Below are positions 21,225-60,047 of a DNA stretch of 64,000 nucleotides, in pieces. Every line of letters begins with the position of its first letter. The first letter of the stretch is position 1. Origin of the DNA: Utricularia gibba (Eukaryota > Streptophyta > Magnoliopsida > Lamiales > Lentibulariaceae); assembly GCA_002189035.1 (NCBI GenBank), contig NEEC01000016.1, forward strand, positions 1,550,001 through 1,614,000, read 5' to 3'. The position numbers and the translations under genes are program-made. Below the pieces are notes generated by a model. The model did not search any database. It was not told the DNA's origin and worked only from the letters and a program-made list of their open reading frames with translations.

Positions 21225-22053
21225 ATGGCGGCGCCTAATGACGACGGCGGTAGCGGCGGCGGCGGATCAGTAGCCGGCCGTCAGACGAGCACAAGGTGGA
21301 CGCCAACGGCGGAGCAGATTCGGATTCTCAAGGATCTTTATTACAACAATGGCGTACGGTCCCCGACGGCAGAGCAGATTCAGAGGATCTCCGCGAAGCT
21401 GCGGCACTACGGTAAGATCGAAGGCAAAAACGTCTTCTACTGGTTTCAGAACCATAAGGCTCGTGAGCGCCAGAAGAAGCGCTTCACTTCCGTCCCCCCT
21501 CCGCCTCTCCCTCCCCCGCCGCACTCTTTCTCCGATCATCTCGCCACCGCCGCCAAGCTCAACGCACCCTTTTCGTCTTCAGGTTTACACACATTTCTTT
21601 TTTTTTTTCACCTCCTCCGTGTTCTTACGTTTTCTCCCTGTAGGTGGATTCGGAGGTCCCTTAGCCATGGAGATGAAGTTCAAAGTAAGCTGAAGAACAA
21701 CGCATTATCAAAATAACAAATCTTCATCTTTTTCTTCTCATAGTGCATGCTTCTCTCGACAGGAGTTCTGCGTCACTCCGGGAGGCGTTTGTACTCCCCA
21801 GAGCTTGGCATGGAACCCCTTCTCCTCCTCCTCCGCGTGCTTCCCTCCGCCGGCAAGGGAGATCGAAACACTGCCGCTGTTCCCGATCCAGGATGAAATG
21901 GCGTGGAAGTTGGTCCCTGAGGGCGGCGCGTCGAGTGTCCCCGGCGAGGGCGCGTCACTGGAGCTCAGCCTGAGCTCCTCCTCCGCCTCCTGGTACCATG
22001 ATGAAGCATGTCGTCTTCCAAATCCGGCCTTGAAACCCCATGCCCACAGTTGA
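21225..22053 (+). CDS. WUS: WUSCHEL homeodomain transcription factor
   Basis: Exons 21225-21582, 21644-21684 and 21763-22053 join in consistent phases to give 229 residues. The atypical homeodomain (about residues 24-89) contains [20 protein letters not shown] and ends with [16 protein letters not shown]. The extra YNN loop is characteristic of WUS itself among WOX proteins. The second exon ends in the short conserved block MEMKFK. Near the C-terminus are the WUS box TLPLFP (169-174) and an EAR-like repression motif LELSL (199-203). The protein is nuclear, maintains shoot stem cells by repressing and activating target genes, and recruits TOPLESS co-repressors through these motifs. It is shorter than Arabidopsis WUS (about 290 residues), mainly between homeodomain and WUS box, and has a 26-residue tail after the EAR motif. 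The ATG at 21225 is the first in frame. Confidence 0.93.
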
Positions 22054-22790
22054 TGCGAAGCTAACGTTACTTGTATGTTTTGGTCATGAGTATTATGAAT
22101 ATAAGATATGATACTAAGGGTTGTGGGTTGGCGAGGGGAGGAAATGATTGGAATGTTGAAAAATAGAGTGAAGTGGTGATGGGAGGCCCAAAAAGCTGAA
22201 TGATTGATTCATCAACACACTTGTTGCATGTCACTTCCCTTCACCTTTTCCAATACCCCTAAAATCCTCATTTCAACCCCAAAATATTTTCCAAATTTCT
22301 ACTATTTAACAAAATTCTACATTTAATTATTATTATTTAATTAACATTAGAAGTTTAATATAAGTAATGGGTCCTCATTGTTTGACGTACTACTAATATT
22401 TAGTTTCTAAAATTTAATGTATCAAATAAATTTAGTTATTGATTGATTTAAAATATTTAAAAAATAAGTATATATAGTTTTTATTATTCTGGGAAATCGG
22501 CGATGATGGTTGATTTTGATAATGAGGATCAATTTTGTCATAATAAAAAAAATAATTGTACATAATTTTTTAAATAATGAAGATGAATATTAATTTTTTA
22601 TGAACTAATCATCAACCATGCCATTTGAGAAGACACCCAAATTTGCAATTTTCAAACTTTAATAAAGTGAAGTAAACCAAATATTGAATACCCAAACAAA
22701 AATGCAAGCATGGGAACCCCTCAATAATTGAGGATTTTTATATAGTTTTAAAACTAAAAATAAAAGTGAGTTTCGAAATACACCATCATT
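22054..22790. other. WUS 3' region and AT-rich intergenic
   Basis: The first 200 bp are probably WUS 3' untranslated sequence. The remainder is AT-rich and shows nothing recognisable. Confidence 0.45.
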
Positions 22791-23740
22791 AATTATTTTA
22801 TTGTGTTATCCTCTGCCGTAAGGTTTGGGGATGATGCAGTTGAGGAACTGAATTGTCTCCTCTGGCGAAAGTTGAGGAAAGCGTTGCAGTTACAGAAGTC
22901 ATGTGGCGTATTCCGATGGGACTGAGACAGACAAATTCATTTTCCCATTCACATTCCTGTCTCCGCTTCCGCACAAAAAGCAGGGAGATGGAGAGAAGAC
23001 AATCGAATGCAACACGGTGGAGAGATGGGCGGTTGTTTGTTTGTGTGTGGGGGGGTTCCAGGACCAGGAAATGGTGTGGGGATTCAATCGGACTGTAAAG
23101 CATGTCGACTTTACATCCTGTTCTGGGCAGCAGGGGGGATTCCGAATTCAAAACGCACACCAAAACGTCAAGATCGCAGAGATTCTGTGTACCTTTTGCG
23201 GTTCATATCTTTGAAACTTTAGCAATCTTGAGGTACACGCACGCCCCATCTTGAGTTTTTGGAACCAGAGCACGATGATGATGATGATGATGAGTGAGTG
23301 AGTCGCAGCAAAGGAAATGATGTCATGGGGTGACAACAAACAGACATGTAACAGCTACTCTTCACCTGCACCCAATCGCAATCTTGTCATCAACCAGCTT
23401 CTGTAAGTGCAGATGGGCTGCGCAGACAGCAAATGCGAGGGTATATAGAGAATGCTCAGCTTCAGTTGCAGTATCTCCAGTATACGAATACCGAAGCCTT
23501 CGACTGTACGCATCATCTACAGGAGATGCCGGTTTCATTCTGCTGCTTCAAGGCAATCATCCCTTTTCATGGGAATGCCAGCAACTCTGACCGCCCGCCA
23601 TTGCAGCACTGAAAGACGATTCACTGAGCCTTTTCCACATGGAAGCTCCAACGACAGCAAGTAACGGGAGGACATCCTGCATAATATATCAACGGACCAG
23701 TCAGTATCTTTATTGAGCATTGGCAATTGAATCATTTTAT
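22791..23740. other. Unassigned low-AT stretch with ATG/GAT microsatellite
   Basis: Composition is genic, with overlapping short open frames on both strands and no family I can name. Around 23430-23600 one plus frame reads GYIENAQLQLQYLQYTNTE, which looks protein-like but has no supported start or exon partners. A GAT/ATG trinucleotide run occupies about 23273-23294. It could be a gene relic or a non-coding transcript. Confidence 0.3.
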
Positions 23741-26580: not shown

Positions 26581-26585
26581 AGTAA

Positions 26586-27746
26586 TCAAATCAACGCAGA
26601 ACTGATTTTTCCCATTAAACTGGGTGGAGAAGCGGCTGCTGGGGTTTCAATCTCATTCTTCGCTTCTTCCTCTCCTTCAATCTCATCATCACTATTGTAG
26701 ACGAACCGGATGTGCTTGCCCGTGAACTTAGGCCAATCACGGACACTCATTTTAGTCATTCCTTTGCAGAGTTCATTCATCAGTTCTTCATCTCCCTCCT
26801 CTTCTTCTTCATCTTCATGTTCAAGGTAATCGTCACTCTCTAGCCACTCGTCTCCTTGGTCTTCCTCATCTTCATCCATCATGCTACTGGCATTTGCCTG
26901 TATAGACCAAATGGATGAGCTATCATCTTCAATGGATAGGTTTTCTCCACTGCTCATTTTGCCTCCTTGGTATGAAGAGCCTCCTGAAGAATTTGATTTC
27001 TCTGAGAAATCCAACAGCAAAGACCTTGTGATCACATTATCACCCTCCAACCCTTCCTTGTTATCCTTAGTCATCATCTTTATCACAAAAAAAATGAGTA
27101 TCAAAATCACAAACTGTTAATCAAAAAATGACAAAAAACTAGAGCTGATTTAGAACCAACCTGGGGTATCAGAATCCTTTCTGTTACAGGTGTAATGGAA
27201 GGTAAATGGTCACCCTCACCAGAGAAGTCCGCTACTTGGGGCGTGTTAGCCGGAGTCGGAGCCACCAATGTAATAGGTACTGGAGAATCGATGCTGAGTC
27301 CATAAACCTTGAAGAGTGGCCTATTTTCAATCGCAATCTTAGAAGGCTCTCCCTCTTCCTCAACCTTCTGCAGAAGACTCTTCACTTGACCACGCAACAG
27401 GGCTTCACCAGATCCAGGCGCCGATTGAATGGTTGCCTTCTTCTTGTAAGCAAACGACGATGGAGTCGCCTGATTTCCCATCGCCAATCCAATAATCGGC
27501 GAATCGTTCGTTATATCAATCAGCGCAGATCGATCTTGCCGCTGCACCGACTTCGCTTTCTCCTTTCCATATTCATCAAGTTTTCCTACAAGAATAATCA
27601 GAAACAGAAAAAAAAAAAGAGTGATCGTAACCGGAACAGAGGAAACGACCCATACCCGTCGCCGGGAAAGGCAAACTACCGTTGTTGGCGGCAGAAGAAA
27701 GGGCATGCGATCTTGTTACTCTTCTAATGGACGACGGAGTTTCCAT
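26586..27746 (-). CDS. Conserved plant nuclear-type protein with D-box-like motif, function unknown
   Basis: Exons 27746-27680, 27585-27161 and 27077-26586 join in phase to 327 residues, starting METPSSIRR. Residues 41-49 (RSALIDITN) fit the RxxLxxxxN destruction-box pattern recognised by the anaphase-promoting complex. After it come NDSPIIGLAMG, the motif GSGEALLRGQVKSLLQKVEE (a short predicted helix or coiled coil) and LVAPTPANTPQV with TP sites. Exon 3 encodes a very acidic stretch (Asp/Glu runs) and a conserved-looking patch, MSVRDWPKFTGKHIRFVYNS. I recall similar uncharacterised proteins in Arabidopsis but not a proven function. The promoter carries a perfect mitosis-specific activator element at 27856-27866, so expression in G2/M and turnover by the proteasome are predicted. 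That role is inference. Confidence 0.7.
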
Positions 27747-27855
27747 GTTCCCGATCTGGCCGGAGCGTTAAGAATCCGTAAGATTTGAGATGAGAAAGTA
27801 GAAGACTCTAACAAAGGAGACGCTGGTAACATATATAGCAAAGCTACAACGTTTT

Positions 27856-27866
27856 TGACCGTTAGG
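27856..27866 (-). promoter_or_regulatory. MSA element (mitosis-specific activator), perfect match
   Basis: On the minus strand CCTAACGGTCA fits the consensus YCYAACGGYYA bound by three-repeat MYB factors in G2/M genes. It lies 110-120 bp upstream of the ATG at 27746. A second core (AACGGCTA, minus strand, 27893-27900) lies 27 bp further upstream. Confidence 0.65.
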
Positions 27867-28199: not shown

Positions 28200-28830
28200 C
28201 ATTAACGATTTCGAGGTGAAGGTTACTGGGTATGGAATTCAACTGCTTTATGGGTTTGGAGGACTCCGTGTGTTTTGTGGGTGAATTTTTTTACCATTGA
28301 GAATGATTGTTTTTGTAGAGATATCGAAGATTGGATGCGGAAGTAGGTTTATTGAGGCACTAGCTGCATCTGATTCAACAGGGGAATGAAGATAGCATGG
28401 CCCAGGGGAAGAAGTTTCAGGTGTCTGTGGATCAGGAACCAACTAGATTAGTGGTAAGATTGATGTTTGGATGATTAGGACTTGTGAGAGGAAGAATTGA
28501 ATCCTGGACCTTCTCCAGGGGCATTTGGCATCGGCGAGCCCTTTTGAAGGCGCCTGATAACAACAAGATGAAAATGGCAGGAGAGGTTGGCAGAGGCGAA
28601 TGAGGCTTTGCCTCGGGTTAAGCCGGCCATGGCTGACGGTCCAAGAGTCAGCGATTCCCGTCTTGAAGCCAACGAAAGAGCCCAGCAAATGCTTCATGAT
28701 CTTCAATCTGAGAAGATGAATTGCGGCGGCGATCATGCGGAGCAGAGACGGGTTCTCGGGTCATCTGCTCTCTGGAAATTTCAAAGCCATTAGAGGAAGA
28801 GGCCATTGGAGGTGAGAACGCAAATGCAAC
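28200..28830 (+). pseudogene. Degenerate coding relic, family unknown
   Basis: Coding-like pieces follow one another in changing frames. The piece at 28319-28452 reads RYRRLDAEVGLLRH, a stop, then LHLIQQGNEDS and AQGKKFQVSVDQEPTRLV before a possible GT donor. The next, at 28480-28570, reads LQGHLASASPFEGA and then a stop. At 28587-28740 comes AEANEALPRVKPAMADGPR followed by SRLEANERAQQML. The final piece, 28725-28822, reads RDGFSGHLLSGNFKAIRG in another frame. The continuity of protein-like text across at least two frameshifts and two stops suggests a dead gene or damaged exons of a real one. I do not recognise the family. It sits about 0.8 kb upstream of the ROP gene. Confidence 0.4.
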
Positions 28831-30747
<1,917 letters not shown>

Positions 30748-31620: not shown

Positions 31621-31740
31621 ACTTTTTTCCCCAAAAGCAAAACCCTAGCCCGCCCTCGTTTTTTTCCCTCTCGTTTCTCGACTACTCGCCTTCCAACGAC
31701 GATTTCCTGCGCCGCCACTGAGTTCTCCCGTCCATTGCTG

Positions 31741-31909: not shown

Positions 31910-33132
31910 ATGGGGAAGGTATCGCCAAATGAGATGCAATTAAAAGGTGGGAGACAGAAGCCATGGTCGAAAAATCGCAAGAGTAGTAAGTACTTGAAGC
32001 CCGGTGCTCTTGCCCAGATTCGAAATAGCAAGGCTGCTAGTAAAGCTTGCACGGATCTTGGGAAGAAACGAGTTGCTATTGCAAACGCCAAAAGGATCTT
32101 AGCAAGTGATGCTGATGATGCGGCTCATCGCAATATAAGCCCTGGATATTTATCGCCTGTGAGGTCCCAGTTGGATACCTTGTATGGGGCTTTAGGTAGT
32201 ATTAGTCAGAACCAGTTACCAAGTACACCATCGACACCCTGTGACAAAGTTTGTGATTCCGAATCACGCCTTGAATCTCTTCCGGATGACTTGCTGGTAC
32301 ATTGTTCTCACCCTTTTCTATCTGATCATTCAGTTTGAATTTTCCAATTTAAGCACTTGAGATTTGCATGTTCGCGTATATTTGATGACCCTCTTTGAGT
32401 CCAATTGAGAATGTAGCACTTCCACCAGTGTGTCGTTTCACAGTTCATACAGCACTTCACAATGATAACTGGGAATTTCCACCACCAATCATGGGTCTGT
32501 TTTCTGATGTAAAGGTGAAAATACTTTGCCATCTCCACCACGATCAGCTCAAAGCAGTGTTTCATGTCTCACGGAAGATTAGAAACGCAGTGAGTTGTTC
32601 CAGTACCATTTTGTTCCTGATTACTTGTCTTTCTGCCCGTAGAAGAAACTGATTGCACACCTTTTTATCCATCTGCTTTAGGTGATTATTGCAAGACAGT
32701 TCTACTTCAATTATACCACTCCAGACAGAACAAGGCAGGAGATGCTGAACACAAGAACTCCACTTCCAACTGATCATTGGCCTTTCATGAGGTTAGCCTT
32801 GACATTTTGAATTCTACGTGACATCCAGTGAAGACCCTTTTGTTTTACAAACTGAACGTATGCATTGCAGCATGCGAAGTGGTAAAGGGATTTGGATTCG
32901 AAGCCCCCACACACCTAAGGCACCCAAGCACGGACAACGCCCCCCATCTCGTTTGAAAATCACAGAGATGAGGCAAATCGCAGCCGTTCTTTTCCAAGAT
33001 TCCTCTTTCTCATCCAAGTGCTTGGTGCCATCAGTACTTGGAAAACCCATGTGTAAGTCGTTGGCTTCCCACAGAGTGTTGCTCTACGAAGATGAACTGT
33101 GCCAAGCAGTCGCTCAGAACAAACTCCGTTGA
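31910..33132 (+). CDS. F-box protein, FBS4-like (At4g35930 type)
   Basis: Exons 31910-32296, 32515-32589, 32682-32791 and 32871-33132 join to 277 residues. The N-terminus starts MGKVSPNE, followed by the block YLKPGALAQIRNSKAASKAC and GKKRV. The F-box lies at about 122-165: ESLPDDLLVKILCHLHHDQL, then AVFHVS. Downstream are RQFYFNYTTPDRTRQEML, a basic patch rich in TPKAPKH and RPPSR, and the family end VLLYEDELCQAVAQNKLR. These blocks match the F-box-stress-induced (FBS) subgroup as I remember it, and especially FBS4. Such proteins join SKP1-CUL1 ubiquitin ligases in the nucleus; FBS proteins respond to stress hormones and bind 14-3-3 proteins. The gene is convergent with FD, about 0.5 kb apart. 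Confidence 0.9.
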
Positions 33133-41010: not shown

Positions 41011-41019
41011 TGAAACGAC

Positions 41020-41800
41020 TGTAGTGGGCAAAGGGCGATCATTCCAGTGTATCTGAAATGTGGCTGCCAACATGAGTGAGATTGCCGCTATGGAGTTTGC
41101 TTCAATTGTGAATAAAAGGGTCATATCGCATGGAATTACACTACCAAGGAAGTTAAGATAGCTCCACCCCCAACGGCCTATGGTACGGGACGAATTTATC
41201 ATCCTGATTGGGCCTGGAGCAAAGTAGGACTAGAAGTTGATTATAGGTACGATCCAACTCCTTAGAACTAATGTCATGGTTTTATTTGATTGTGGTGCCA
41301 CCCATTTGTTTGTATCAGGGGAATGCGAGGTGGGGTCGGCTGCATGAGGAGGAGTTGAGTTTCAAATAAGGATCTTAAGAGGGGAAATCCTTTGTAGTCG
41401 GCGACTGGCTTTAATATCAACTGTGACGGCCCTACCTAAACCCTAAGTTGGATTCTACCCTTGATCACCTTATACAGTCAAGGGATTGAGGTATCACCCA
41501 ACAACCACGACCTTTCAAAAAAATAAAAAAAATAAAAAGATATCCCCTTTAATCAAAAGTAAAGTAACAACAATCCGAGCAACTATGACAAGCAACAGAA
41601 AAGGTTCATATAGTCTATTAACATCAATTGTAACCCAAAACCAAGTGAGCCATTACCCAAAATATCCGACCGCCTACCCAGCTCTTTCCTCTAGCTGATT
41701 GCTAGCACCAGCTTGTTACTCGCCACTAATCGCTAGGTTGCATGTGCTGCCATGAAGGCTCCGACCTGCAGAGAAAGTTAAGGTGTTAGTCTCTACAGCT
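41020..41800 (+). mobile_element. Ty3/gypsy zinc-knuckle/protease fragment with LTR-like tail
   Basis: At 41055-41160 the translation includes CFNCE, a stop, then KGHIAWN, a broken CCHC zinc knuckle. At 41275-41325 LFDCGATH and LFVS form the retroviral-type protease motif. About 90 bp later the phrase TGTGACGGCCCTACCTAAAC at 41420 resembles the start of a plant gypsy LTR. Everything in between is deleted. It is not connected to the Athila-like element at 43.4 kb. Confidence 0.65.
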
Positions 41801-43440
41801 TTTACCCATTACAACACACACCCACACGAGCCCAGCACCACCCTGTGCTCACATGTCCTTAGACACTTCAGGCTAGCCTTCATAACCCATATGCCCAAGT
41901 TAAACTCCATGATCCCCTTGTGCTCGTGCCCACCCAGCACCCTACTCCTTCCTTCAGCACCTAGGCTAACGACTTCATCCCACATGACCCGATGACGTCC
42001 TTGTGTACCAAATTCCACGATAACCTCCCAGTCCAGAGCACCTGCTCCGCTATCGTGCACCCACTCAACTAGCACGCCCAACGTCATTCCCATGACCCTG
42101 CACGACATATAACCTCTGCGCTTGAGGCTCAGACCGTAGCACCCAACGTTGATCTCCTAGAGACTATGGCTATTGTTGATTTATGCACACTATGGGTTAA
42201 GTGTCATTTTTTAATTTATTATTAGGTATTATTATGTGTTAATCTAGTGTTAAGTCTTCCAATTAGGAATTATATTGATAAGTAATTTATTTTCCTAGAA
42301 AAATCCTATTTTCCTATTTTGTATATATTTTATTTGTCTTTTTCATGCATTTTGATCGAGATATGTGAGGAGGCAGTCGTGGAGTGTTGCAAGAGGATAG
42401 ACTCTGACTTTTCGTGCCTTGCACGTGACTCGGAAAAATTGTGGGCGGAAGACTGACACTGGTAAGGCCCCTGACTTACGGTATGTCAAAGTCTTCAGTA
42501 ATAATTGGGCGCTAACTTGCACACAAAGAAAAGCTGGTAGCACACGCAAGACAGAAGGAATGATGGAAGGGGACCAAAAGGAGTTAATGCATGTAGGAAG
42601 TGATATAAAATCAACTTGGAACACTTGCTTTCGGATCTTCTTTTTGCACTTATCTTTGTACTTAGAACTTTGAGGTTTTCCCCCCTCCAAGGAGGAAGAA
42701 TACTTAGCTCCCATTTTTGTTCTGTTTTCATGGCCCTTTGTGGCTAAAACTCTTTAGTTTCTGAGAGTAGATGAAGTTTCCTTCCAAGTCTTGAGCATTT
42801 CACTTGTTTCTTCGCTAAATTCAATCCGGATTTTGCATACTTCCACGTGTATTGTTGCAGTCTTTCTGTAACGACTCTTAGTCATGGTCTATGAGTAGCA
42901 GGCCACTCCTTGCGGGTCTTGATGAAGAGCAAGGTGAAGAGCACCAACTCCAACCCTACCGGTTTGAGGGAAGTAGCGAATTGTTTGTGGTAGAGGTAAC
43001 ACGACAATGGACGAGTAGTGACCTCGTACCCGCTACTGGTCATTGGCAACAGCTGAGCACATGCACACAATTCTCTTCTCTTCTTAATTGTCCAAGCGAG
43101 AATCACATGAGGCTATTTCCGTGCCTCCTTGTTAATCAGAGTGTAAGAGAAAGTAGGCTATTCCTTGATCCTATAACCAGCTATTCGGAAGGAATTAGTG
43201 AAAATTGAGGCAAGGATAGACAAAAGAAGGAGACGGAATCTCATTCTACAGAACTGTGTCCCGTAGTCAATGTCAATCACTTAGATTGTAACTTTTATTT
43301 CTACATTTCAAAAACCCCTTTTTACAAATCCGTGACAATTTATGAAAGTTTTCTACAAAACACTTTTCGCAAAACTCAACTCCCTGAGATCGATACTTGT
43401 ACTATGCTCTTTTGTGTTTTACATTTTACATATTTAAAAT
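41801..43440. other. Probable LTR or leader preceding the Athila-like element
   Basis: No host gene is recognisable. The last part, up to 43440, contains CCCTGAGATCGATACTTGTA, the LTR end also found inverted at 7912-8127. It leads straight into the primer-binding/leader phrase at 43465. The left end of the LTR and a matching right LTR were not found. Confidence 0.45.
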
Positions 43441-46440
43441 TTGTTGGGGAAATGACATGCAACAAATTTTGGCGCTGTTGCCGGGAGTTGTGTATTTTTG
43501 TATTTAGTGTTGTATATAGTTTTTCTTTTTCTTTTCTTTTTCTTTCTTTCCTCTTGCTTTTCTTTTGTTTCCATTTTGCTATTGTTTTTCTTTGTTTTTA
43601 TGCATTCAGCTCCACCCAAGGGTCACTGAAGCTTGAGATCGTATCGAGAAATCTTGTGCCCCTTAGATTCGGAGATTGAGTGCACATTTCTAGCGAAAAA
43701 GCGAGAATTAATTTCTATTTCATCTACTGACAAAGAAATGACTGCTTAACCACTACTAGAGTCCCCACAATGCACGAAGAACAGGAGCAACAGCATTTGC
43801 AATTTTTTCCAGTTCTGCCGATCACTAATCATGGCCTAACACTAAGGACCATCAAAGAAGAAATCACCACCAACCATGCTGACCAACCATTTTGTATCAT
43901 CTTTGATGCGGAACAGGACTTTGAGCTTTGCCCATATCTGTTCTAGACACTTTCTAAATTTGCTGGGAGAGAAAATGACGACTCAAATCGTCATCTTAGA
44001 GAGTTGCACACGTCTTGTGCATCCATGCACCTAAAAGGTGCTACGGAGAACCAAGTCAAGCTGCAGATCTTCCCTTTCAGTCTCACTAAGCGAGCCTTGG
44101 AATGGCTATGTGGACTACCACCATCCTCTATTGCAACCTGGGAGCAAATGGTTCAGATCGATATGCGCCACTAGGAAGAGCCTCCGCGGGAAGAAGAGCT
44201 TTAGCTACCATGCTACAAAGTGAAGGAGGGAATTTACAAAAATATTAGGACAAATTCAACCGGATATGTGACACATATTCACAGCATGGACTTACTTAAG
44301 GTCAAATTCTACAACATTTCTACGAAGGATTGACCCCCATGATCAGAGGACAAATAGATGCCACTTGTAATGGGTCATTACTAGAGAACCACCACAGCGC
44401 TAACGCCCGAAGATTGATAGAAAAAATGGCTGCCAACTCTTATTCTACTTCCAGTCAATATGACCACTCATATCGAGCACCTGAAGGAATTTCTCAGCCT
44501 ATAAAATCAATGCATGAAGTGGACAATTATGAAGTTTTAGCTCAACTTGCTGCTATGAGTGATACATTGAAGCTATGATACATGAGATGCCAATAGAAGA
44601 GGTAAATGCATTTTACCAGAACCAATGAGGAGCTTACAACTACGAAAACTATCAAATGCTGCGAAGATACCACCCTGGTTTCTGCTGGAGACAAGCAGTA
44701 CCTCCTGTTCAAGCCCCATCACTAGGGAACCCTTATGCTGTTCCTCAACAAACTCTCACTGCTCTGCCTCAGCCTTTGCAAATCACTGGAGTTGCAGATC
44801 AACATCTTGTTCCTTATCATCCGAATCATAATTTAGAGTCCATGGTGAAGTACCTTGTCGAAAGCACCACCAAAATGCATGCCGCCCAAAAGGATATCGA
44901 TGGATGAATCACTAGCATGCAAACTCAAATCACCTAGTTAGAGCAAGCCATGAACTGGTTGGAGATGCAAGGAGCACTGCCATCCCAGCCAGTGAAGAAC
45001 CTAGAGCACATCAACGCAATATCTTTAAGAAGTGGGAAGGATCTACCGGAACCTTACCCATGGTTCATGACTAAGGTGGACAGATCCGAAGAAAAGGAAT
45101 TAGAAGTCTTGGACGACGATGATGACGTGGATGAGGAGATTATTTTAGAGAATTCTGATGGTTCTCCAGTCGAGAACAATGTTGTACCGATGCCACCTGA
45201 AGAAGTGAAGGAGAAGGAGTTGCAAGAAGTTGATCATCCCAAGACTTTAGTCATTCAACCTCCTTTTCCTATGAGACTTTGAAGGAAGAGCAAGGACAAA
45301 CGTGGACTAAAGGCTTTCATGGAGGTGATGAAGAAGGTTAATGTGAATATCCCTTTGCTGGAAATGATTGATCAAATGCCAAAATTTGCAAAAATGTTAA
45401 AGGATTTGTGTGACCCCAAGAAGAAGATAAAAGTGGAAGAGGTAATTCCTTTGACTGAAAATATTTCAGCAATTATTCAAAGATGGCTTCCATGAAAGTG
45501 TAAGGATCTAGGTATTTTTCCATACCTGTTACTATTGGTGATACCAAAATTTCAGTTGACATGTGCGATTTATGAGTTCTATGTGCGATTCCAAAGCCTG
45601 TTGAGGTTTGCTTTGGGGCTAATGGACAACAAGCATCTCATGATGCTCAGATTTCGATAGGTGTTCCTATCTCAACTGAGGGAGTGGCTCATCTTTGTGG
45701 CTGTGGAAACCACTGAGGAGCTACTTCAGGTAGCTTGCTACTCAAGACTGAACTAGGGGTGATCGATGAAGAGAAAGGCAAGAAGTTTGATTTTGGAGAG
45801 CAAAAACCTGAGAGAAGTGCCATGGGTTCGATGGCAGGTCTCCGGACACCCTATGGAGAGTGTCGTTATGCCGGAACCCATTTTAGCTACAGTTAGATGG
45901 GACATATCACTTAGAATTGTTTGGGGAAGGAGACGAAGGCTATGTAGAACACGATAGAGTGAGTCATGGCAACCATTCAGATCACACAGAGGCAAAGAAG
46001 AATGAGAATGATATATAATAGGTATGCTCCTACTCTTAAAAACAAATATTGCAGTTTTTTTCGATTGCGGAGCCATGCATTCCTTCATCACGAGGGAATG
46101 CACATGACAAGCAAGACTTTAGGGTCATGAATTGGTTGAGTGTTTGAAGCTAAGACATCAAGAGGAAGAGTACTGTGTGGAAGGCATAAACACACTAAAG
46201 TGGTGATATGCCTAAGGGCTATGGGAGCCAAGGTGGATTGATAGAATTAGATATTTTTGGGATTGATGTTATCTTAAGATTGAATTGGCTATGATGGTAC
46301 CAAGCAGGGATTGGTTGTGCCGGATGGGTCATTGAGCTTGAGGATGCACAAAGAAGGAAATAGGAGTAAAACCATGAAAAGAGAGCCAATGGATGAAATA
46401 GTGGAATTTATACAAAAATTTCGAGATGTGTTTTTGATAA
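43441..46440 (+). mobile_element. Athila-like Ty3/gypsy element, gag-protease part, degenerate
   Basis: The phrase TTTTGGCGCTGTTGCCGGGA at 43469-43488 is the leader that follows the 5' LTR in Athila/Tat gypsy elements. Gag follows in broken frames. One block, from about 44000, contains LHTSCASMHLKGA and ALEWLCGLPPSSIATWEQM. FYEGLTPMIRGQIDA follows at 44320, then RRLIEKMAANSYST, and a linker with AISLRSGKDLPEP at about 45015. The block VNIPLLEMIDQMPKFAKMLK, at about 45340-45400, is the conserved region before the protease. No recognisable reverse transcriptase or integrase follows, so the 3' half is missing or too decayed. Confidence 0.8.
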
Positions 46441-47690
46441 CACTGTTTTTATGGTATTTTTATATGTGTTTTTAGTTGTAGGTTTAAATGTTATTTAGTG
46501 TGTTAAATTGTCTACTTTTGTCTATTTAGATTGTTAAAATGTATTTATTAGGAAAACATGCTCAATTGGCAACAATTGAGCTGAAAACTCTAACATTTTC
46601 CTCTAGTCCGTGTTTAAGTCTTAACAAGGTAAGAACTAGTACTGTAGCAGTGCATCTTCCACATTGACAAGTCAAAATGGACACAAAAGTTGTGCAAAAG
46701 TCACTTTTCTCTGAAAGCAGCCACTCTTCTGAAAAGATAAGATTTGGAACAGATATCTCTCTTCTAAAAGCTTGAGGAAAAGACGAAACTACCCTTACTT
46801 TTGAGCTGAAAAAGGAAAAAGTAAGAGAGAGATAGAGCGAACAGTGAGGGGGGAGAAGCGGAGCGAGAGCGAGGAGAATTGTGTTTCTCCGGCGACCTTC
46901 AGATCTACATTCTACACCAGCATTCCACTCAAGATTTTGATTTTCAGTAGATCTACATCTCACAGAAGTATCTTGATACTTTTATTTGCATTTTTCTGCA
47001 CTTTCGTTGTTGTTTAACTTACGCTATTACTTCCTTCATTTTCATGCTTTCTGTTACATTTCGATGCCTTGTTGTGAACGAGAAATCCCTTGTACACCTT
47101 ATTTCAGCTTATGAACATGATCCTGTTTAAGCCTTTCGTGTTTGACTTTGGATTTCCATGCAGTGCAATGGCATGTTTGTAGTGTCTAGAGAACATTGAA
47201 ACCTCTTGATGTTGGAACACATTAATGACATCTTTGCGGTACCTTGAGGACATTGAAGCTTTGTGATGGCTAGGCACTACAATTGCAAGTTTGTGCATTG
47301 CCAAAAGAATTTCACATGAAATTATAAGTTTCCCCTTCTCCTTATTTCAAGCTTGGGTCTGATTGTGTCCAAACATGGACACATGTGGAGTTAAAAACTT
47401 GTACTTCAGTCAGTATATGAAAAAAATGATAAATGAATAAATAATATGGTAAAGTCACTCATTCTCATATATGGAACTCCCTTCACCACCGTCATCATCT
47501 TTACCATTTTGTATAAATGATATCAAGCTTGACCGTCTCAGAGTGAGAATCTTAACACTCAAGCTGAAGGCACTTTGTGATGCCACGGTAGAAGCTAGGG
47601 GTGCCAGCACATGTCTAGCCACCTATGCCAATATATGATACATTGCAACTTACAATTTCCACCAATTTAAGACGTCAAAGTTATCACTCT
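46441..47690. other. Repeat-derived sequence, LTR-like
   Basis: The stretch 46560-47340 contains an inverted phrase at its left end (GCTCAATTGGCAACAATTGAGC) and a long GC/purine-rich core at 46810-46900. It reads like an LTR and leader of a retroelement, but no partner LTR is in the window. No host gene is seen. Confidence 0.35.
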
Positions 47691-47700
47691 TAGCTTAAAA

Positions 47701-49299
47701 CTAGTGGGTTGTATTGGACAATACCACCTCGTTAGCCTTGATGGTCATGCTAGGAGATGTTGAAATCATGGAATAATAATCATATGCAAAAGAGAAGATC
47801 CATCTATGCAACTTCTCACTTCCAACCCGCATATTGGACGCTTCGCACTCATACAAGTCATACAAATATGTTAAAGCATCTAAAGAAGAGGTATACATTT
47901 TTTTTGCATCAAGTCGGATATTAGGAAGTTCAAGGGATGTGAAATAATCACAAATCAAATTTAAACCGGCGTGCAAACTGGTTGCTTTTACCCTAGGATC
48001 AAGCATGTTTGCTACAAGAAACAACATAGGTATAGTCTCAAAATATTTCATAAATGTAGTGGCTATGACAATCAAGGTAGACAACACAGCATGTATGGTA
48101 AGATAGTAAACACCACTAAATAACCTAGTGTATTTATGAAAAATAGAAAGCAAGTCAACCAATATGTCAAACTTAGCATGCACATCATCATCATCCACAA
48201 TATTAAGGTCTGTATACGTAGTTAAAAACAATGATACAACTTCTCTATAAGGAATAAAAAATTGAAGCATAAAAAACGTAGAACTCCATCGTGTTGGCAA
48301 ATCTATTCTTAAAGTTTGGAAAGGCGGACACTTTAACCACATAAACGCTTAAAAGACACCATTTTGTGCTAAACATCTTCACATGATAAACTATCCTATG
48401 CACACTAGACAAAGCAGCCTCAATATCATTTTCATTTAGTGCATCTTGTACATATAAATTCAAAATATGACATGACAAATGCATCTTGATCTAAAGAAAC
48501 ACCCACTTAAAACAGGATTTATAGATGATTTCAACATGGACATCGCACCAACATTATTGGAAACATTATTAAGATTTATATTAAAGACACGATGAATAAT
48601 TGAATACTCAATATATAAGTAACAAATTTAGCAATTTGTGACTCCATGTGTGGAGTCACTTTTGTATAAACCATTTGCAATCAATCTAATGAGCAATTAC
48701 AACTAAATAATTTTCATCATTAATATCATGCCAACCATCACAAGTTAAACCAAATTTGCATTTCATAGATTGAAAATCATAGATCAAATGTGATTTTTTT
48801 CTTCGAATTGTTTTGACGCAATTCCACCCGCTTTTCTCTTAGACATGGGAGCAAGTCTAGGTTGCAATCTAGATTAATAAAAATGTCGAAAAAACAGATT
48901 CTCTACTTCTAAAAAAGATTTTTCACTAGCAATCAATGCAATTACATAATCAACTTAGGTATCATCAAGATCAAATGAAAAGTTTGAAACATAGCCACGC
49001 AAAAAATTCAAAGTAGATTGTCCTAATGAAGTATATGTCTTGTCTATATGCTTACTTCTAATATTACGAATGAAATTAGAAGTTGAACCACTCTTACCAT
49101 AATCATACATGATGACATAGTACTTACAACATACTTTTTTAGCCTCTTTATCGTGGTTGAAATATTCATACCAATTGATGCATGAAGCATCTCGTTTTTT
49201 TGAGGTGAAAGAGATATCTTCCCTATCGCCCAAAACCTCAATATTACACTCAGGATGTTGCTCGTGTGAAGGTGTCACACTTTGATGTGATTCTTCCAT
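47701..49299 (-). mobile_element. hAT-family transposase relic
   Basis: On the minus strand, the BED-type zinc finger comes first (about 49215-49030: NWYEYFNHDKEAKKVCCKY, then STSNFIRNIRSKHID). The CHILNL(Y)VQDAL region follows at about 48475, and then the RWSST motif at 48291. MLDPRVKA lies near 48006, and the block ends with VSSTSPS-like sequence. This order is that of the RICESLEEPER/DAYSLEEPER-type hAT transposases. Multiple frame breaks and a gap between the zinc finger and the core show it is dead. The right flank at 49680-49830 is rich in GACCCG/CGGGT phrases, as is common beside plant hAT ends. Confidence 0.8.
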
Positions 49300-52200
49300 A
49301 TTAGGTTACCTGAAACACAATTGGGAGAAACAAATCATTCCCAAACCTTACATAAATTACTATTAACCGCACATACGCATGCTTGTGTTTCTCTTTGGAT
49401 AGTCGCACACATACATTTTGGAAGGTCTCCAAACACCACAAAGCATGTGAGTTCTAGGGATTTAGCTTCAATTTTGGTCCAAAAGTCTTTGATAATGCAG
49501 AATTAATCTCCTAAATGCGCAATGAACAGCACACAAAAGTCACAAGAGGGAGGGGCACAAGCATTTGAAAAACATGTTATTAGCCCATGTATTTATATGA
49601 TGGTGAATTGGGACTTTATAACATTCATATACATTAAAGAGATTGAAACCCAACGGTTGAACATCCTAGCTCTTTTTGATAGACTACATTACAAGCCCAT
49701 ATTGGTTGACCTGCAGGGTCAACCCGTACTCGTGCACCTCCGACCCGTCCCGTACCCGTTTTGGATGGTTACAGGTAATGGGTTGGACCCATCACAGGTA
49801 AACCCATATCCGTGCCCAGCTCTAGCGGGGCATTGAACCAAAATCTCAATCGCCCTTTGTGAATCGAGTAACTCCCCCATCACCTGCATGGTCTTTTGCT
49901 TTCATGTGATAACATATGTTTTTCAATGTATTAGGACTACAAAATGAATAATATTATGTTATTAAACTAGTAGTTTATTAGATATTTCTTTATTTTCATG
50001 ATTAAGAACATTATTTAGATTTTTTAGTCCCAACGTTCATCCTAATTATTTTCTTTGAGCAATGCACCACATTTTGGGCAATGCAAATTCCAATGAGTTG
50101 AAAGTGTACAATGGAAGTAGACCAAATTCCAAGGAGACCAAAAAGTAGATTTTGGAAATAATGAAGAAATAAAAAGTGGATCTCCCCGTTGAAAAATACA
50201 CAACACAATTCTAAGGAGGGGGATTTAGTAGAAAATCATAGAAAAACCATGAAAAAGAAGAAGAAGATGAAGAACTCAGCTACATTTGAAGATATATTAC
50301 TTCTAGTCAGGGGTAATTTTAACTTTTTGCACGGAAGAACCAGGAAAATTGTTTATTTTCTATTGTTCAACTTTAAAACGTGGATGATGTTTATGTTATG
50401 ACATCCACAGAAAACAATAATCCAACATAAAAGTAATTCATTATTTATGTAAAATAGAAAAGAAAATAAAAACTTTCATTTTTTAAGTAACTTGAAAATA
50501 TAAAGAATAATGAATGTAATTCATTATATTTGGAGTGTGACATAAAAAGACCAAAAGGGATAAATTCAATCAATGAACATCTTCAAACAACCTTTAAAAA
50601 TTAAAGAAATGATTTGTGAATTGTTGAAACTATGACTATTCACTCAAAGCATTAGTGACGTTACAAAATAAGAAATGTTGTAGCATCGATCACATCTTCA
50701 CCTTCTTGAATGTTGATATTGTTGAAAATTGGACATTAAGAATGAGAAAACAATAAAAAACTCAAGCACGTAACATGCTATGCTAGTATTTCTCGATCTT
50801 CAAGGATTCAAGAGTCTTTTCAGGAACACTATTCAACTTAGAAATTAGTTATATATATATATGTCTAACTCTAATGAACTCAAAAAAAAAAAAAAAAAAT
50901 GTGGGCTTAGCCCGTATGCACATGTAAGAGGCTTTTGGGGTCGGTTAGTTTTGCACCCCTCCTCCTTCACATGTAACCTTTTGAGTTTTAGGGCCCTTCG
51001 AAAATCCAATTCGATTTAATAAATTAGAACCATGCGAGATTAACTCATTTTCAAGTTCATCAAAATTAATGTGTTAATATTTCATATAAATTAGTTGAAG
51101 AGAACTTCAACTAATAATGCGGGATACTCATCTATTCTCCAATATCCAATATTTTCAATAGATACTCCCTATAAAGATGACGTTGAGTATGTTCATGCCC
51201 AATAGGTTGCATAAACAACAACACTTAATTCAGTCATAGAGATGCTTCTAACAAGCTCAAGTCCATAACTTGTTTTCAACAAATCACAAAGTTGGAAAAA
51301 AAAATGTATCCATCATCAACTCATCATAACATCTTGCTGGAGTTCCTTCAAGCATCTCTTTCAATTTTCACTGCCCCCATAAGTCTTCTAGTTGGACATG
51401 GCATTTTTGAGATTTCAATGAGTAATTACCAATGGAGGAGACAATTTTTCCTCGTATGTTGTAGTCTTTGTACGGTAGACTTGAAAGAATATCCATCATT
51501 TTCAGATGACATTTTAAGAGGCTATGAATAAAATATAAAACAATTTATCATTAAGTACCCCATAAGAAAAATTCTAGTTTATGATATTACAAAAAGAAAA
51601 ACTCTAATTTTGTTATGGCTATAGAAACAATTTAATAGCTATAAAAACTCTAGTTTGTTTATTTCACTATTTGCTTAAAAAAAAATCATGTAAAAATTAA
51701 TTCACTCAATATCCACAATTCTACTATCATTTATTGATACCTTAAAATTTTACAATCAACCATAATCAACAATTCACAAGAAGTGCAGTATCCCAAGCGA
51801 TAAAAAACATTCGAGAAAATTGTATATAATGCTTTTTGCATATAATGCATAGGAAGAACAATTTCGTGTTGAGCTTGGCATCAAGTTGATACAGTCACAA
51901 TAGTAGAGATTACAAAGTATATTGAATTTCAAAGAGAATCCAAAGGGATCGAATTAGTCATCTTAATTTTTGACAAAGAGAACAAAATATTACTTATGAA
52001 AATAAATCTATTTGACTCTTGATTAAAAAGAAATAAATTGTCAACACCAGAGAAGCTTATGGATAGAAGAACTTTTTTGTCTTTTTACGATTGCAGTATT
52101 TGTATGGAATCTATCTTAGAAACATTAGAACAATCTCTTTTTAGATAACAGTGGTGTTATGAAAAATTTTTAGAAGCTATTTTTATTTTTCAAAAAATAA

Positions 52201-53330
52201 AAATAATTTTATTCTAGAACACTATCAATTGTAAATGTAATTATATCACAAGTAATTTTGAAATTATACTACAAAAATTATTTTTAGAGAAGTAAAGAAT
52301 TACCTACTTTTCCATCTTTAAAAAGTAATTTTGAAAAAATAGAAATACATTCTAAAAATTTTTCACAACGCTGCTTAAGAATATACTACAAGGCAATGTG
52401 CAAAATATTACTTTTTTGTGTGTAAGTGCCCCAAGTCTGCCAATGGAATTAGAGTTGTGTTAATGACAAATCCTGTATAAAATAGAACATGTTGCTAATG
52501 AAACAAATCTGAAGGTTTTGATGTTATTATCGTATTAGTATATTTGGAATATTAGGCGGAAAAAGTTTTTTGTGAATGAATATTCCCATAAAGATTCTAT
52601 TGAATACAAAATATATGAATAAAAAATGCACATACATTTAAATAAATAGTTGCTCAAATCATCCTTGACAATTCGACGAGCCTCAACCACCTAAACAATC
52701 TTTATTTTTCGTAATATTTAAGCATATTAATTTTATTTGTACATTTAATTTAAAAACCATCATCTAAATATTACCATTAGAAAAAGTTTGAAAAAAAATA
52801 TCCCTTGATTTTGAATTCTTGTTTTATAAAAAGACAGCTATTAAGCAGAAGGTGTTCCAAACCTATGGAAATTGTTGTTGTTAAACCGGGTACGGAGCAG
52901 GAGTTGGAAACCTTGCTCTCAAATTACGACACATACTTCCAAATTTCTTTTAACCAAAAGCGAGAGCATCCCGTATTATAGTTTTGGACGAGCATTGATT
53001 ACACAGAGAGAGACTTCATTTGAAACATGAAACCACTACTGCGTTTTGGTATATTATATTAATGGGGCTGGCGGGAGATTCTCTCTTCAAATTTAATTTT
53101 TTTTCTATAACAAAAAACCATAAATATAACAAAAAAATTATAAAAAAACCGTCTCAAACTGATTGGGTTGGGTAGTACCCAGCCAATGCCTGACTGATAT
53201 CATGCTGAAGTTTAGTGGGCTATCTATGGTGTACATTTCACACCAACACTTTGGAGGTTTTTAATTTCATGTACAAAGTGTGTAGTTACTGCTAGTAACT
53301 TGCCCAACTCAAAGTTTGATTAAACTGGGG
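49300..53330. other. AT-rich intergenic with scattered repeat debris
   Basis: No gene is recognisable over 4 kb. An AT dinucleotide run lies at about 50850-50865 and an 18-base A run at about 50882-50900. The stretch 52400-53050 resembles parts of 62230-62600 (for example TAATGACAAATCCTGTATAAAATAG against TAATGACAAATGCTATATAAAATAT), so it is a dispersed repeat with two copies here. Confidence 0.5.
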
Positions 53331-53454
53331 TTTGTTTGAAAATTTGCGGTTGGATTGATGCTCAGCTAGGACAACTCCTACCCGCACTCTCAGTATATAA
53401 TACGAGGTTCCTACACCCAGGTTTGTGCGTGTTGCCTCTGCTGTCGGGAGAGCA

Positions 53455-54083
53455 ATGGACTCCCCCAATTGGGAATCGGACGAGGGCTCCTCAGCGGCTC
53501 ATCCGAACCCCAGGCGCAAACCAGAACAAGAACAAGGAGAAAAGAAAGATTCTCCTCCCAGGGTTTCCCGTGGTCCGCCAGTTCCACACTCAGAACCCCA
53601 CGGGGTAGGCCTTCCGATGAATCTGCTTTCCAGTGGTTTAGGAGGCTTGAACCACCGCCGAATCCGATTACTGGTGAGTTGGATTTTTTAGGTACGCAGG
53701 GTTTGGTTGTGACTGTGCAGGGGGGAGTACACGCTGTGCCGATGGTAGGATCTCCCGGGGAGATGACCCGAAAGAAGATGCGCCACGGCCAAGGATCCAT
53801 GAAGCAGCCCAGACATGGATCCGGGAAGAAGTGCTATGTTTGTGGTAAAGAGTTCCATTCTGACAAGGCTTTGTTTGGCCACATGCGATCTCATCCCGGA
53901 AGAGGGTGGCGAGGGGTTTACCCTCCGCCGTCTTTTCAAGCTAGCCAAGAATTCGCTGACCTTCGGGATCTTCAACAAGCTGCTATCGCCGCCGTCGCAT
54001 CCCCCATGAGGATACCGCAACATCTTCTGTGCGAGACCGTGGGCAGAATGCGCCGGAGGGGCGCCCTGGCCTGCCGGATCTGA
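53455..54083 (+). CDS. Single C2H2 zinc-finger protein, with a 1-bp deletion
   Basis: The reading frame starts at the ATG at 53455 (MDSPNWESDEGSS). After a shift at the G run 53602-53605 it continues as GRPSDESAFQWFRRLEPPP to the TGA at 54081-54083. The span is 629 bases, one short of 210 codons, and a fifth G in GGGG restores a continuous 209-residue frame. The finger, at about residues 126-146, is CYVCGKEFHSDKALFGHMRSH, a C2H2 finger with KALFGH in place of the usual QALGGH helix. It is followed by PGRGWRGVYPPP. A Lys/Arg patch before the finger may act in nuclear import. It is probably a plant transcriptional regulator. No EAR motif is obvious. The gene is intronless, as many plant C2H2 genes are. 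Confidence 0.75.
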
Positions 54084-56380: not shown

Positions 56381-56485
56381 TAAATGGATGATGTTGGGGA
56401 GGAAAATATTCGCGTACCCGATCGTTGTCATTATTTCGCCGAATCCCTTGGAATTTCACTCGCTTTACTTTCTTCGCCGGGATCC

Positions 56486-57503
56486 ATGGAGTGGCAAAAG
56501 CAACCGCCGCCGCCGCCGCAGCAGCCGGAGGATCCGGGTGGCGGTGTGTTTGTGAAGGTCATGACCGACGAGCAGATGGAAGTTCTGCGCAAGCAGATTG
56601 CAGTTTACGCCGCCATTTGCGAGCAGCTCGTGGAGTTGCATAAATCCCTTACTTCTCACAACGATCTTGCAGGTACGGAATCCAGGATGTAAATTGAATT
56701 AGCTCCATTTTTTTTTTTTTTGTCGCTGAAGCGCAATCCCTGTCTGTGTTTCAATTGAAAACGCTGCTTATTTTTTGGATTAGGAATGAGGTTGGGAAAT
56801 ATGTATTGTGATACGTTGATTGCATCGGGGACGCACAAAATTACTGGTAGACAGCGGTGGACTCCCACAGCGATGCAACTTCAGATTCTGGAGCGCATGT
56901 TTGATCAGGGAATTGGAACCCCAAGCAAGCAGAAGATCAAGGAAATAACTGGTGAATTGTCACAGCATGGCCAGATTTCTGAAACCAATGTCTATAACTG
57001 GTTCCAGAATCGGCGAGCTCGGTCGAAAAGGAAGCAGCAGTCTACTCCTTCAAACAAGGAAGAATCAGAGGTGGATACTGAAGTTGAATCTCCCACTGAG
57101 AAGAAAGCTAAGCCTCCAGAGTTTCAAGCTCACCACGCGCTAACGTCATCTGCAGGCGATCTCTGCTTTCAGGATCATTCATTTCATTCCGTGGATACTC
57201 TCAATGGGAAGATAGACTCTATTATGTCTCCAGAAGGCAGCTCAAAGTTCGGTGACATTCTTGGGCAAATGCCCTTCTATGGGAGCACGCTGTCCGGTTC
57301 AAGTAACTGTTTCATCTTGACAAGTTGCTTTCTTTTCCTAAAACATAGCTTTATCTGCTTCAATTTTCATCTTTGTTCTCTTTTCTTCGTGTTCAACTCA
57401 CACTTTCTGTTTTAAAGGCGCAGGGATAGATCAGATAATGGGGAAGATGGAAGTTCAAGGAAATTATAATTATTTGCTACAAGATGGCTATAGCATGGAC
57501 TGA
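56486..57503 (+). CDS. WOX13: WOX13-type homeodomain transcription factor
   Basis: Exons 56486-56672, 56784-57302 and 57418-57503 join to 263 residues. The N-terminus MEWQKQ is followed by a Pro/Gln run and the block [20 protein letters not shown], then [12 protein letters not shown]. This block is conserved in the ancient WOX13 clade. The homeodomain (about 87-146) contains [19 protein letters not shown] and ends [16 protein letters not shown]. The clade-specific [14 protein letters not shown] contrasts with [13 protein letters not shown] in WUS. Then [15 protein letters not shown]. There is no WUS box, as expected. It acts in the nucleus; the Arabidopsis relative affects flowering, fruit replum and callus formation. 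The ATG at 56486 is chosen by homology. Confidence 0.92.
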
Positions 57504-58341
57504 TAGCTTGCAGAATATATACATATCATATACAGACTGAAATGCTCCAAGTTGACCTTTGGACAAATGATATTGCTTTGATGCTTTTGGTTTCCTGTTT
57601 TCCTTGCTGTGTGGAGTAAAATCTATTGCAGGATAAAGAATGAACTTCGTGTATGTTAAAAGTTACTGCATTCACTGCGCGATGTATTGTTTTTCTGTAA
57701 TGGAAGCCATGGTGGGAGGTAAAAATGCAGAATATTTGTCTCTCCACTTTTGTGGCTTCCCATGATGACTAGAACTGCCTGATTGTCACGTGTGTAGTGC
57801 TTGAGCTCCTAAGACATCTGCGAGTTCTCTTGAGCATGTCTCTGTGTTATTTTCCTCTGTAATGTAACAGTAAAATAACAGACGTAAAAAACAAAAGACC
57901 TCCAGCACTTGATGGGCAAATTTGTAGGGGGCATTCCACGTGAATGCGGGGACACGGATACGGGGACACATCCGGATCCTTAGATTTTGAGTTAAAAGTG
58001 CCACTTAGTTGAACCATGGTTGCCAATGGTCGGTTTATGTTCAATTATTCATCTATTTCCCAGCATGTGGTGACGCGCACTTGCCGTGTCCTTGTTCTTA
58101 ATCATTTGAAAGAAGCTATCTTGAATTCAGTTTCTATTACAGGAGAAGAAGCACCTCAAAGTCACCAACTACAGTGCTACACCGCAAAGAGGAAAGAAAC
58201 CATACTGTGTTTCCCACTCTATGGCAAGAAAACAAAACAAAAAAAACTTCTTCATGTGATCTCTATATCCCTTTAGATCCATATCATCATCCAAAATAGA
58301 AAGAAACGAAAAATCAGATCCAATAGTATGCTAAAAACCAG
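57504..58341. other. 3' flanks between WOX13 and the kinase gene
   Basis: The stretch 57504-57720 is probably WOX13 3' untranslated sequence. At 57935-57980 the phrase GGGGACACGGATACGGGGAC is a short internal repeat. The rest shows no gene. Confidence 0.45.
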
Positions 58342-60047
58342 CTATTGCTTGTGCATCTTGAGCTGAAGGCCGGCCACTCCAGCATTGAGCTTCTCAATCT
58401 TAGGCTCATGACTCACCCCATCCTCATGCTTCTGATCATCCACGTTAAGCCAAGGATGCTGAAGACACTGCCGGACGGAGGGCCGTTTCTCGGGTCGAAA
58501 TCGAGTATCGGTTGAAGGAACTCTGTGAACTCACGAGCATCGCTTTCAGAGAACTTGTACTTGTCAATGAGGAGCCGGCTCAGTGATCCATACTTGAGTC
58601 TTCTGATCCTCTTCAGGTCCCCATATCTGTCGAAGTAATCTTTGGCTCGAGCCCCAGATGTGGCTACCTTTAGATAACAAGTGATGGAACATCATTCACA
58701 ATATTGAAACTCAGTGATATTCAAAAATGATGCATACCTTGCGAGGAATCTTCCCAAGGAGCTCCATCATCAATGCAAGGTGATCCTGCAATTTTCGTTG
58801 GAGAATAAATGATATTGATCCATGTGATGTTTTGGGGACTGATGCAGTTTGTGAAACAGTCAAGAACCATGCAAAGTGAGTAAAAATTGAGGCTTGAAGT
58901 TGTGCATAGAGCAGAGGGATAAATGATCAGAAATGTACCTCATCCTCACTGAAACCTTGACCATTCTTGGGAACAAACATCATCTCACCGGTGGCAAGTT
59001 CGAATGCAGTACAAGCAAATGACCACATATCAGCAGGAAACGAATAGCCAGACTGAAGTATGACTTCTGGAGCTCGATACTGCCTTGTCTGAATCTCTTC
59101 AGCAATTGGCTTATCAGCCCAACACGCATTTCCAAAATCTACAACCTTACATCTCAAATCAATCCCATCCAAGGATCTAGCAGGCTTGGGAACAATGGTG
59201 GGAACTCCCATTGAAGCTCGTCTTTCTGATATCCGAGCAACCGCACTTCTTGCCTTCTGCTTCAGTTTTTTCTCAATGCTGTTCATGGTAGCCCCAACAT
59301 TGGGGTTCCCTTCAGGCCTCTCAAGGATAGGAGTCATTCCTGACCTAACTGGATCTTTCGAAGGGTTAATAGTAGAAAACAGCAGAATGTTCTCCGGCTT
59401 AAGGTCAGTGTGTAAGATTCCCAACTGACAATGCAAGTAATCCAGTGCAGTCAAAATGCATTTGCAGATCTCCCTTACTCTGTTCAGCTCAAGACCCTTG
59501 TATCTGTTATACTTGATCAGTTGAAGTAAACTATCACCAAGAAACTCAAGAACCATGCAGATGTGCTGCCCATTTGGTCCCGAATGCTTGAAGTGATCCA
59601 CTAAGCAGACAACATATTTGCTGTTGGAGGGATCCCCTTTAGCGATCGATGAAAGGATGTCGATTTCATGTAGTGCAGCTTGAGCAAACTGGGGAGCACT
59701 TTTTTGGATTTTCAAGGCAACATATTTCTGACACCAAAATCAAAAAGCTTCAGTCAACAGAGAGCAACAAAAATCGCAATCCTGAAGCTCCCACAGCACC
59801 CACAAACCAAAATGAACGCAAAACAGACAAAAAGAGACAAAGAATCGATTTTTCTTACAGATGTTCGAGTATCGTAAGCTAGCCAAACCGTGGAAAACTG
59901 TCCCCAGCCCAGTTTCTGCTGCGCGATGTATCTCCCAGAAGCGAATGAATCGCCGAACCTGACGGCATGGTACCCTCCTTTCCTATAGGAATCGATTCCT
60001 TCATCTTCGTCCTCCGATCCCGAAGACGAAGAGGGGCAACCAGACAT
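58342..60047 (-). CDS. SRPK-type serine/arginine-protein kinase, with a 1-bp deletion
   Basis: Exons 60047-59859, 59727-58939, 58785-58738 and 58667-58342 give 450 residues if one base is restored. The P-loop LGWGQFSTVW is at 45-54 and the ATP lysine in VALKIQK is K69. The catalytic loop is HTDLKPEN with Asp171, the SRPK variant of HRD. DFG is at 260-262, and TRQYRAPE follows. The roughly 80-residue spacer between catalytic loop and DFG, with Arg/Lys-rich helices, is as in plant SRPKs. These kinases phosphorylate SR splicing factors. Near 58491 the minus strand reads CCCGAG where CCCGGAG would give DPEKRPS, the expected subdomain XI. With it the frame runs exactly to the TAG at 58342-58344. 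As written it stops at 58413. Confidence 0.9.

What the first reader, a model, noticed from the sequence alone, without database searches (positions are those of the whole stretch)
21225..60047. WUS, FD, CYCB2, WOX13, ROP, FBS4, C2H2 and SRPK in one block: apparent ancestral state of two Arabidopsis regions
The gene order ROP, FBS4, FD, CYCB2, C2H2, WOX13, SRPK equals, from memory, At4g35950, At4g35930, At4g35900, At4g35620, At4g35610, At4g35550, At4g35500, in exactly that order. WUS would be At2g17950, in the chromosome 2 partner block, which also keeps a ROP (At2g17800), FDP (At2g17770), CYCB2;1 (At2g17620) and an SRPK (At2g17530). This window would thus show the pre-duplication order, with WUS linked to WOX13 and FD. 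In Arabidopsis WUS and WOX13 would then have ended up on different chromosomes through reciprocal loss. Two WOX genes of the modern and ancient clades 35 kb apart is itself unusual.
Basis: partly seen in the sequence, partly recalled or inferred. Interest (0 to 1): 0.75.

Follow-up and report, generated by a model that had tools for sequence, protein, structure and literature searches.

The report
Conserved WUS–WOX13 gene block, bladderwort
This stretch of what is almost certainly the humped bladderwort (Utricularia gibba) genome keeps an old eudicot gene order in which the stem-cell gene WUS lies near its distant cousin WOX13, but the genes sit so close together because neighbouring genes were lost after genome duplications, so it is not an untouched ancestral state.

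Summary
All eight named genes are present in the stated order, plus an unnamed gene between WUS and ROP and a dead TPR gene. The order matches, by gene number, both Arabidopsis regions. The genome carries the Utricularia COX1 dicysteine motif and matches the long-read U. gibba assembly, so it is a core eudicot (Lamiales), not an early-diverging angiosperm. It is also not unduplicated: a homeologous block on contig C505 (dS about 0.53) and an older one on C255 (dS about 1.0) carry the same genes in the same order. C505 keeps five genes that the window lacks, but has lost FD and FBS4, has a broken WUS, and has a WOX13 without its homeodomain. Published locus numbers put WUS and WOX13 on one chromosome, about 120-130 loci apart, in coffee, tomato and poplar. 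So the linkage is an old, widespread eudicot feature, while the 35-kb spacing is derived. It is ordinary conserved microsynteny with a clear case of fractionation. Interest is low to moderate.

The parts
21225..22053 (+). WUS: 229 aa, three exons (21225-21582, 21644-21684, 21763-22053), homeodomain with FYWFQNH, WUS-box TLPLFPI, EAR-type LELSL
   Evidence: homeodomain best PDB hit is Arabidopsis WUSCHEL, E 1e-37
26586..27746 (-). Gene X, 335 aa, no Pfam family; conserved in homeolog C505 at the same place
28529..28992 (+). TPR-protein pseudogene remnant, frameshifted; intact-looking copy in homeolog C505
29601..30747 (+). ROP/RAC GTPase, 7 exons; among Arabidopsis chains in the PDB the best hit is ARAC6; apparent 1-nt deletion at the exon 6 acceptor
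31910..33132 (+). FBS4-like F-box protein, 277 aa, single copy in the genome
33627..34532 (-). FD-like bZIP, 188 aa, C-terminus RTLTAPF, GC-AG first intron; only close copy in the genome
36245..38192 (-). CYCB2-type cyclin, 9 exons
53370..54083 (+). C2H2 zinc-finger exon (N-terminus not resolved)
56486..57503 (+). WOX13: 263 aa, three exons, WOX13 (T1WOX) motif upstream of the homeodomain, [10 protein letters not shown]; only intact T1WOX found in the genome
58413..60047 (-). SRPK-type kinase, 4 exons; apparent 1-nt deletion changes the last part of the frame
38900..53300 (.). Interval between CYCB2 and C2H2 with hAT-like transposase remnants; a CCHC/gag-like stretch at 44.3-45.3 kb was recognised by eye only. 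In C505 the same interval is about 1.3 kb

Best explanation
The window is one fractionated homeolog of an ancestral core-eudicot gene block, in the genome of Utricularia gibba (very likely). Before the younger Utricularia duplication the block read WUS, FHA gene, X, CPK16/18, ARM, COX15, rhodanese, TPR, ROP, FBS4, FD, CYCB2, C2H2, WOX13, SRPK; earlier still it held many more genes. Shown: the window and C505 share this order and retain complementary subsets; WOX13 on C505 lost its homeodomain through an internal deletion, and the window's TPR gene decayed in place. Inferred: small deletions after whole-genome duplication removed the rest, which brought WUS and WOX13 to 35 kb. The same process, acting on the Arabidopsis At2g17/At4g35 duplicate regions, put WUS and WOX13 on different chromosomes. 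Nothing requires a function for the linkage.
For: Collinear homeolog C505:1012893-1049765 and older block C255; pooled dS 0.53 for window-C505 and 1.03 for window-C255; the WOX13 gap is 413 bp in the window against 37 bp in C505 and covers the homeodomain; FD and FBS4 absent from C505 and single-copy genome-wide; FHA, CPK, ARM, COX15 and rhodanese genes kept on C505 but missing from the window, TPR intact-looking there and broken here; COX1 dicysteine motif (all Utricularia, PMC11688529); assembly of 100.1 Mb with a 3,424,836-bp contig against a published 581 contigs and contig N50 3.4 Mb (PMC5793159); two recent WGDs and fractionation in U. gibba (PMC8333044, PMC6982007); coffee Cc07g10660/Cc07g11890, tomato Solyc02g083950/Solyc02g082670, poplar Chr05 8.86/7.79 Mb.
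Against: No Arabidopsis, grape or Amborella genome could be searched, so the cross-species collinearity rests on published locus numbers and on recalled AGI names. The ancestral interval of about 120-130 loci is read from gene numbering, which counts loci only roughly. Only about 50-60 kb was fetched around each duplicate, so lost genes may have moved rather than been deleted.
Confidence: 0.9

Rival explanations
1. The window is the unduplicated pre-duplication state kept in an early-diverging angiosperm, with WUS and WOX13 primitively adjacent.
For: Gene order equals both Arabidopsis regions; in two magnoliids WUS and a WOX13-clade gene lie on one chromosome (Annona Chr3, wintersweet Chr11).
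Against: Utricularia COX1 motif; at least three duplicate blocks in the same genome; genes missing here are kept on C505; spacing in coffee, tomato and poplar is about 120-130 loci.
Confidence: 0.04
2. WUS and WOX13 stay linked because of selection, for example shared regulatory DNA or co-regulation of adjacent developmental genes.
For: Linkage recurs in Utricularia, coffee, tomato and poplar.
Against: Arabidopsis and one poplar copy separated them; C505 destroyed its WOX13 and broke WUS; many unrelated housekeeping genes share the linkage.
Confidence: 0.03
3. The block arose by recent tandem or transposition events that happened to gather these genes.
For: Retroelement and hAT remnants lie in the window.
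Against: The same order recurs on C505 and agrees with published locus order in other eudicots; C505 has a far shorter CYCB2-C2H2 gap yet keeps the order.
Confidence: 0.01

Closest known systems
Arabidopsis duplicated regions At2g17 (WUS, ROP3, FDP, CYCB2;1, SRPK) and At4g35 (ROP5, FBS4, FD, CYCB2;2, WOX13, SRPK)
   Same: Same genes in the same order; WUS survives only in one region and WOX13 only in the other
   Different: In Arabidopsis the two regions are complementary survivors of an older duplication; the window keeps both WOX genes in one copy
Asterid and rosid WUS-WOX13 linkage (coffee Chr07, tomato Chr02, poplar Chr05)
   Same: WUS and WOX13 on one chromosome
   Different: About 120-130 loci apart (about 1.1 Mb in poplar) instead of 35 kb
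Post-WGD fractionation in Utricularia (PMC6982007, PMC8333044)
   Same: Alternate gene loss between homeologs in a tiny genome
   Different: Here shown gene by gene for one block that holds WUS, WOX13 and FD

Membership tests
WUS (T3WOX) | WOX homeodomain with FYWFQNH, WUS-box TLxLFPxx, C-terminal EAR motif | tested here: met
   FYWFQNH, TLPLFPI and LELSL present; PDB WUSCHEL best hit
WOX13 (T1WOX) | Conserved WOX13 motif upstream of the homeodomain, YNWFQNR, intron just upstream of the homeodomain | tested here: met
   motif [31 protein letters not shown] in exon 1, homeodomain in exon 2; criteria from PMC2584047 and PMC6788696
FD (group A bZIP) | bZIP basic region and C-terminal SAP-type RxxS/TAPF phosphorylation motif | tested here: met
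   Pfam bZIP_1 E 2e-15; C-terminus RTLTAPF
FBS4 | F-box plus the FBS-specific flanks | tested here: inconclusive
   F-box-like E 3e-4 below cut-off; FBS-specific flanks judged from memory only
CYCB2 | Cyclin N domain of B2 type | tested here: inconclusive
   Cyclin_N E 3e-40; subtype assigned by synteny and recollection, not by a tree
Whole-genome-duplication homeolog (window and C505) | Collinear paralogous genes with similar dS | tested here: met
   seven collinear genes (one a WOX13 pseudogene), dS 0.47-0.60 for five of them
Unduplicated ancestral block | No paralogous block in the same genome | tested here: not met
   C505 and C255 blocks
Arabidopsis At2g17/At4g35 alpha duplicate pair | Anchors collinear with both regions | not testable with these tools
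   No Arabidopsis genome held; locus numbers from papers and memory; SRPK pair tagged '>2-4a' (PMC545797)
Utricularia | Contiguous cysteines in COX1 helix 3 | tested here: met
   SLLLLCCSALVEVG on contig C515; motif fixed in Utricularia and also found in one Genlisea section (PMC11688529)

The most novel reading that the evidence does not exclude
WUS and WOX13 linkage could be a relic of an ancient WOX gene cluster, so that the founding WUS-type gene arose near a WOX13-type gene and the two have stayed on one chromosome arm since before flowering plants.
Probability: 0.03. Interest if true: 0.7.

Novelty: new member of a known kind. Interest (0 to 1): 0.25.

Why it matters
It fixes the ancestral order of a block that holds two meristem and flowering regulators (WUS, FD) and WOX13. 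It shows why Arabidopsis has WUS and WOX13 on separate chromosomes. It also gives a readable case of fractionation: one homeolog lost FD and FBS4, lost the WOX13 homeodomain and has a broken WUS, while the other lost at least five different genes. It warns that close spacing in compact genomes should not be read as ancestral linkage.

Tried and rejected
Early-diverging angiosperm: rejected by the COX1 motif and the duplicates. Unduplicated block: rejected by C505 and C255. Tight linkage as ancestral: rejected by coffee, tomato and poplar locus numbers and by genes kept only on C505. A MAFFT alignment of the WOX13 pair misplaced exon 1, so the BLAST blocks were used instead. For WOX13 the exon-2 hit of the dS script fell on the C505 WUS homeodomain, so that dS value is discarded. 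Literature searches for the tomato FD locus and for one set of COX1 terms returned nothing. Gene X could not be named.

Full report
What was checked. The window lies at G000:C402:1550001-1614000 in a 100.1-Mb, 516-contig plant assembly. I built spliced models by matching exons to GT/GC-AG sites. WUS has the homeodomain with FYWFQNH, the WUS-box TLPLFPI and the EAR-type LELSL, and its homeodomain matches solved Arabidopsis WUSCHEL at E 1e-37. WOX13 has the upstream WOX13 motif and [10 protein letters not shown]. FD has a bZIP domain and ends in RTLTAPF.

Where it comes from. The mitochondrial COX1 on contig C515 reads SLLLLCCSALVEVG. The contiguous cysteines are fixed in Utricularia and otherwise known only from one Genlisea section (PMC11688529). 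The assembly size and a contig of 3,424,836 bases fit the long-read U. gibba assembly (581 contigs, contig N50 3.4 Mb; PMC5793159; 101 Mb, PMC6982007). I conclude that this is Utricularia, very likely U. gibba: a Lamiales asterid with two recent whole-genome duplications (PMC8333044), not an early-diverging angiosperm.

Duplicates in the same genome. Searching the genome with each protein gave a second block on C505, from WUS (1012893) to SRPK (1049765), with X, ROP, CYCB2, C2H2 and a WOX13 remnant in the same order and orientation. Synonymous divergence for WUS, X, ROP, CYCB2 and SRPK is 0.47-0.60 (pooled 0.53). A third block on C255 keeps WUS and ROP at pooled dS 1.03, so it is older. By chance only about 0.2 WOX-ROP pairs within 40 kb would be expected in the genome, yet three blocks carry such pairs.

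Fractionation. C505 has lost FBS4 and FD without trace, and both are single-copy in the genome. Its WOX13 keeps the motif exon and the C-terminus, but a stretch of 413 bp in the window is replaced by 37 bp there, which removes the whole homeodomain; the rest holds stops. Its WUS has CTG in place of the start codon and a frame change before the WUS-box; the frame change could be an assembly error, the lost ATG less likely so. Conversely C505 keeps an FHA gene, a CPK16/18-like kinase, an armadillo-repeat gene, COX15 and a rhodanese gene that the window lacks, and an intact-looking TPR gene that is broken in the window. C255 keeps a CPK and a cold-shock-domain gene between WUS and ROP. The ROP3 number, and the assignment of the kinase to CPK16/18, are from memory.

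How old is the linkage and how tight was it. In coffee, with no duplication after the eudicot triplication (own knowledge), CcWUS is Cc07g10660 and CcWOX13a Cc07g11890 (PMC11641659). In tomato WUS is Solyc02g083950 and WOX13 Solyc02g082670 (PMC9788163). In poplar WUSa and WOX13a are 1.07 Mb apart on Chr05, and WUSb stands alone on Chr07 (PMC4023605). These are about 120-130 locus numbers apart, so the linkage is old in core eudicots but loose. The 35-kb distance in the window is a product of gene loss. In magnoliids the two genes share a chromosome but lie far apart (Annona Chr3 loci 1665 and 2847, PMC12905963; wintersweet Chr11 loci 833 and 217, PMC11991195), which is weak evidence.

The order is ancestral and the reciprocal-loss explanation for Arabidopsis is the best available; the SRPK pair At2g17530/At4g35500 carries the shared tag '>2-4a' in a survey of splicing genes that reports duplications (PMC545797). 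But the window is itself a fractionated duplicate copy, so 'ancestral state' holds for order only, not for spacing or content. Linkage of a modern and an ancient WOX gene is widespread rather than unusual. No paper found here discusses the pair explicitly, but it can be read from published tables.

Limits. No reference plant genome could be searched, FBS4 and the CYCB2 subtype rest partly on recollection, and ROP and SRPK each contain an apparent single-base deletion in a short run, which in a long-read assembly is most simply an error.

Noticed in passing
window 30504 (ROP exon 6 acceptor) and about 58505 (SRPK last exon): Each gene has an apparent 1-nt deletion in a short run that shifts the frame; C505 SRPK reads FDPEKRP where the window reads FDPRNG. 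Probably long-read assembly errors.
   Followed up: partly
L001 6893-7784 (C505:1012893): The homeologous WUS has CTG in place of ATG and a frame change before the WUS-box: a decaying or non-AUG WUS copy, while the C255 copy looks intact.
   Followed up: partly
window 14525-18480: A Copia-type retrotransposon (reverse transcriptase, integrase) on the minus strand; its reverse-transcriptase part is split over two overlapping frames.
   Followed up: no
window 3658-4521 and 47701-49305: Retrotransposon gag fragment and hAT-like transposase fragments; a CCHC/gag-like stretch at 44300-45282 was recognised only by eye.
   Followed up: no
window 872-1129 and 6309-6641: Two similar small secreted GRP-like proteins about 5.4 kb apart (weak Pfam GRP, below cut-off), a possible tandem pair.
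   Followed up: no
window 34149 (FD intron 1): FD intron 1 appears to use a GC donor (AAACAG|GCACCG).
   Followed up: no
window 26586-27746: Gene X, with a conserved ALIDITNDSPIIGLA core and an acidic C-terminal part, has no Pfam family but is retained in both homeologs (dN/dS about 0.3).
   Followed up: partly
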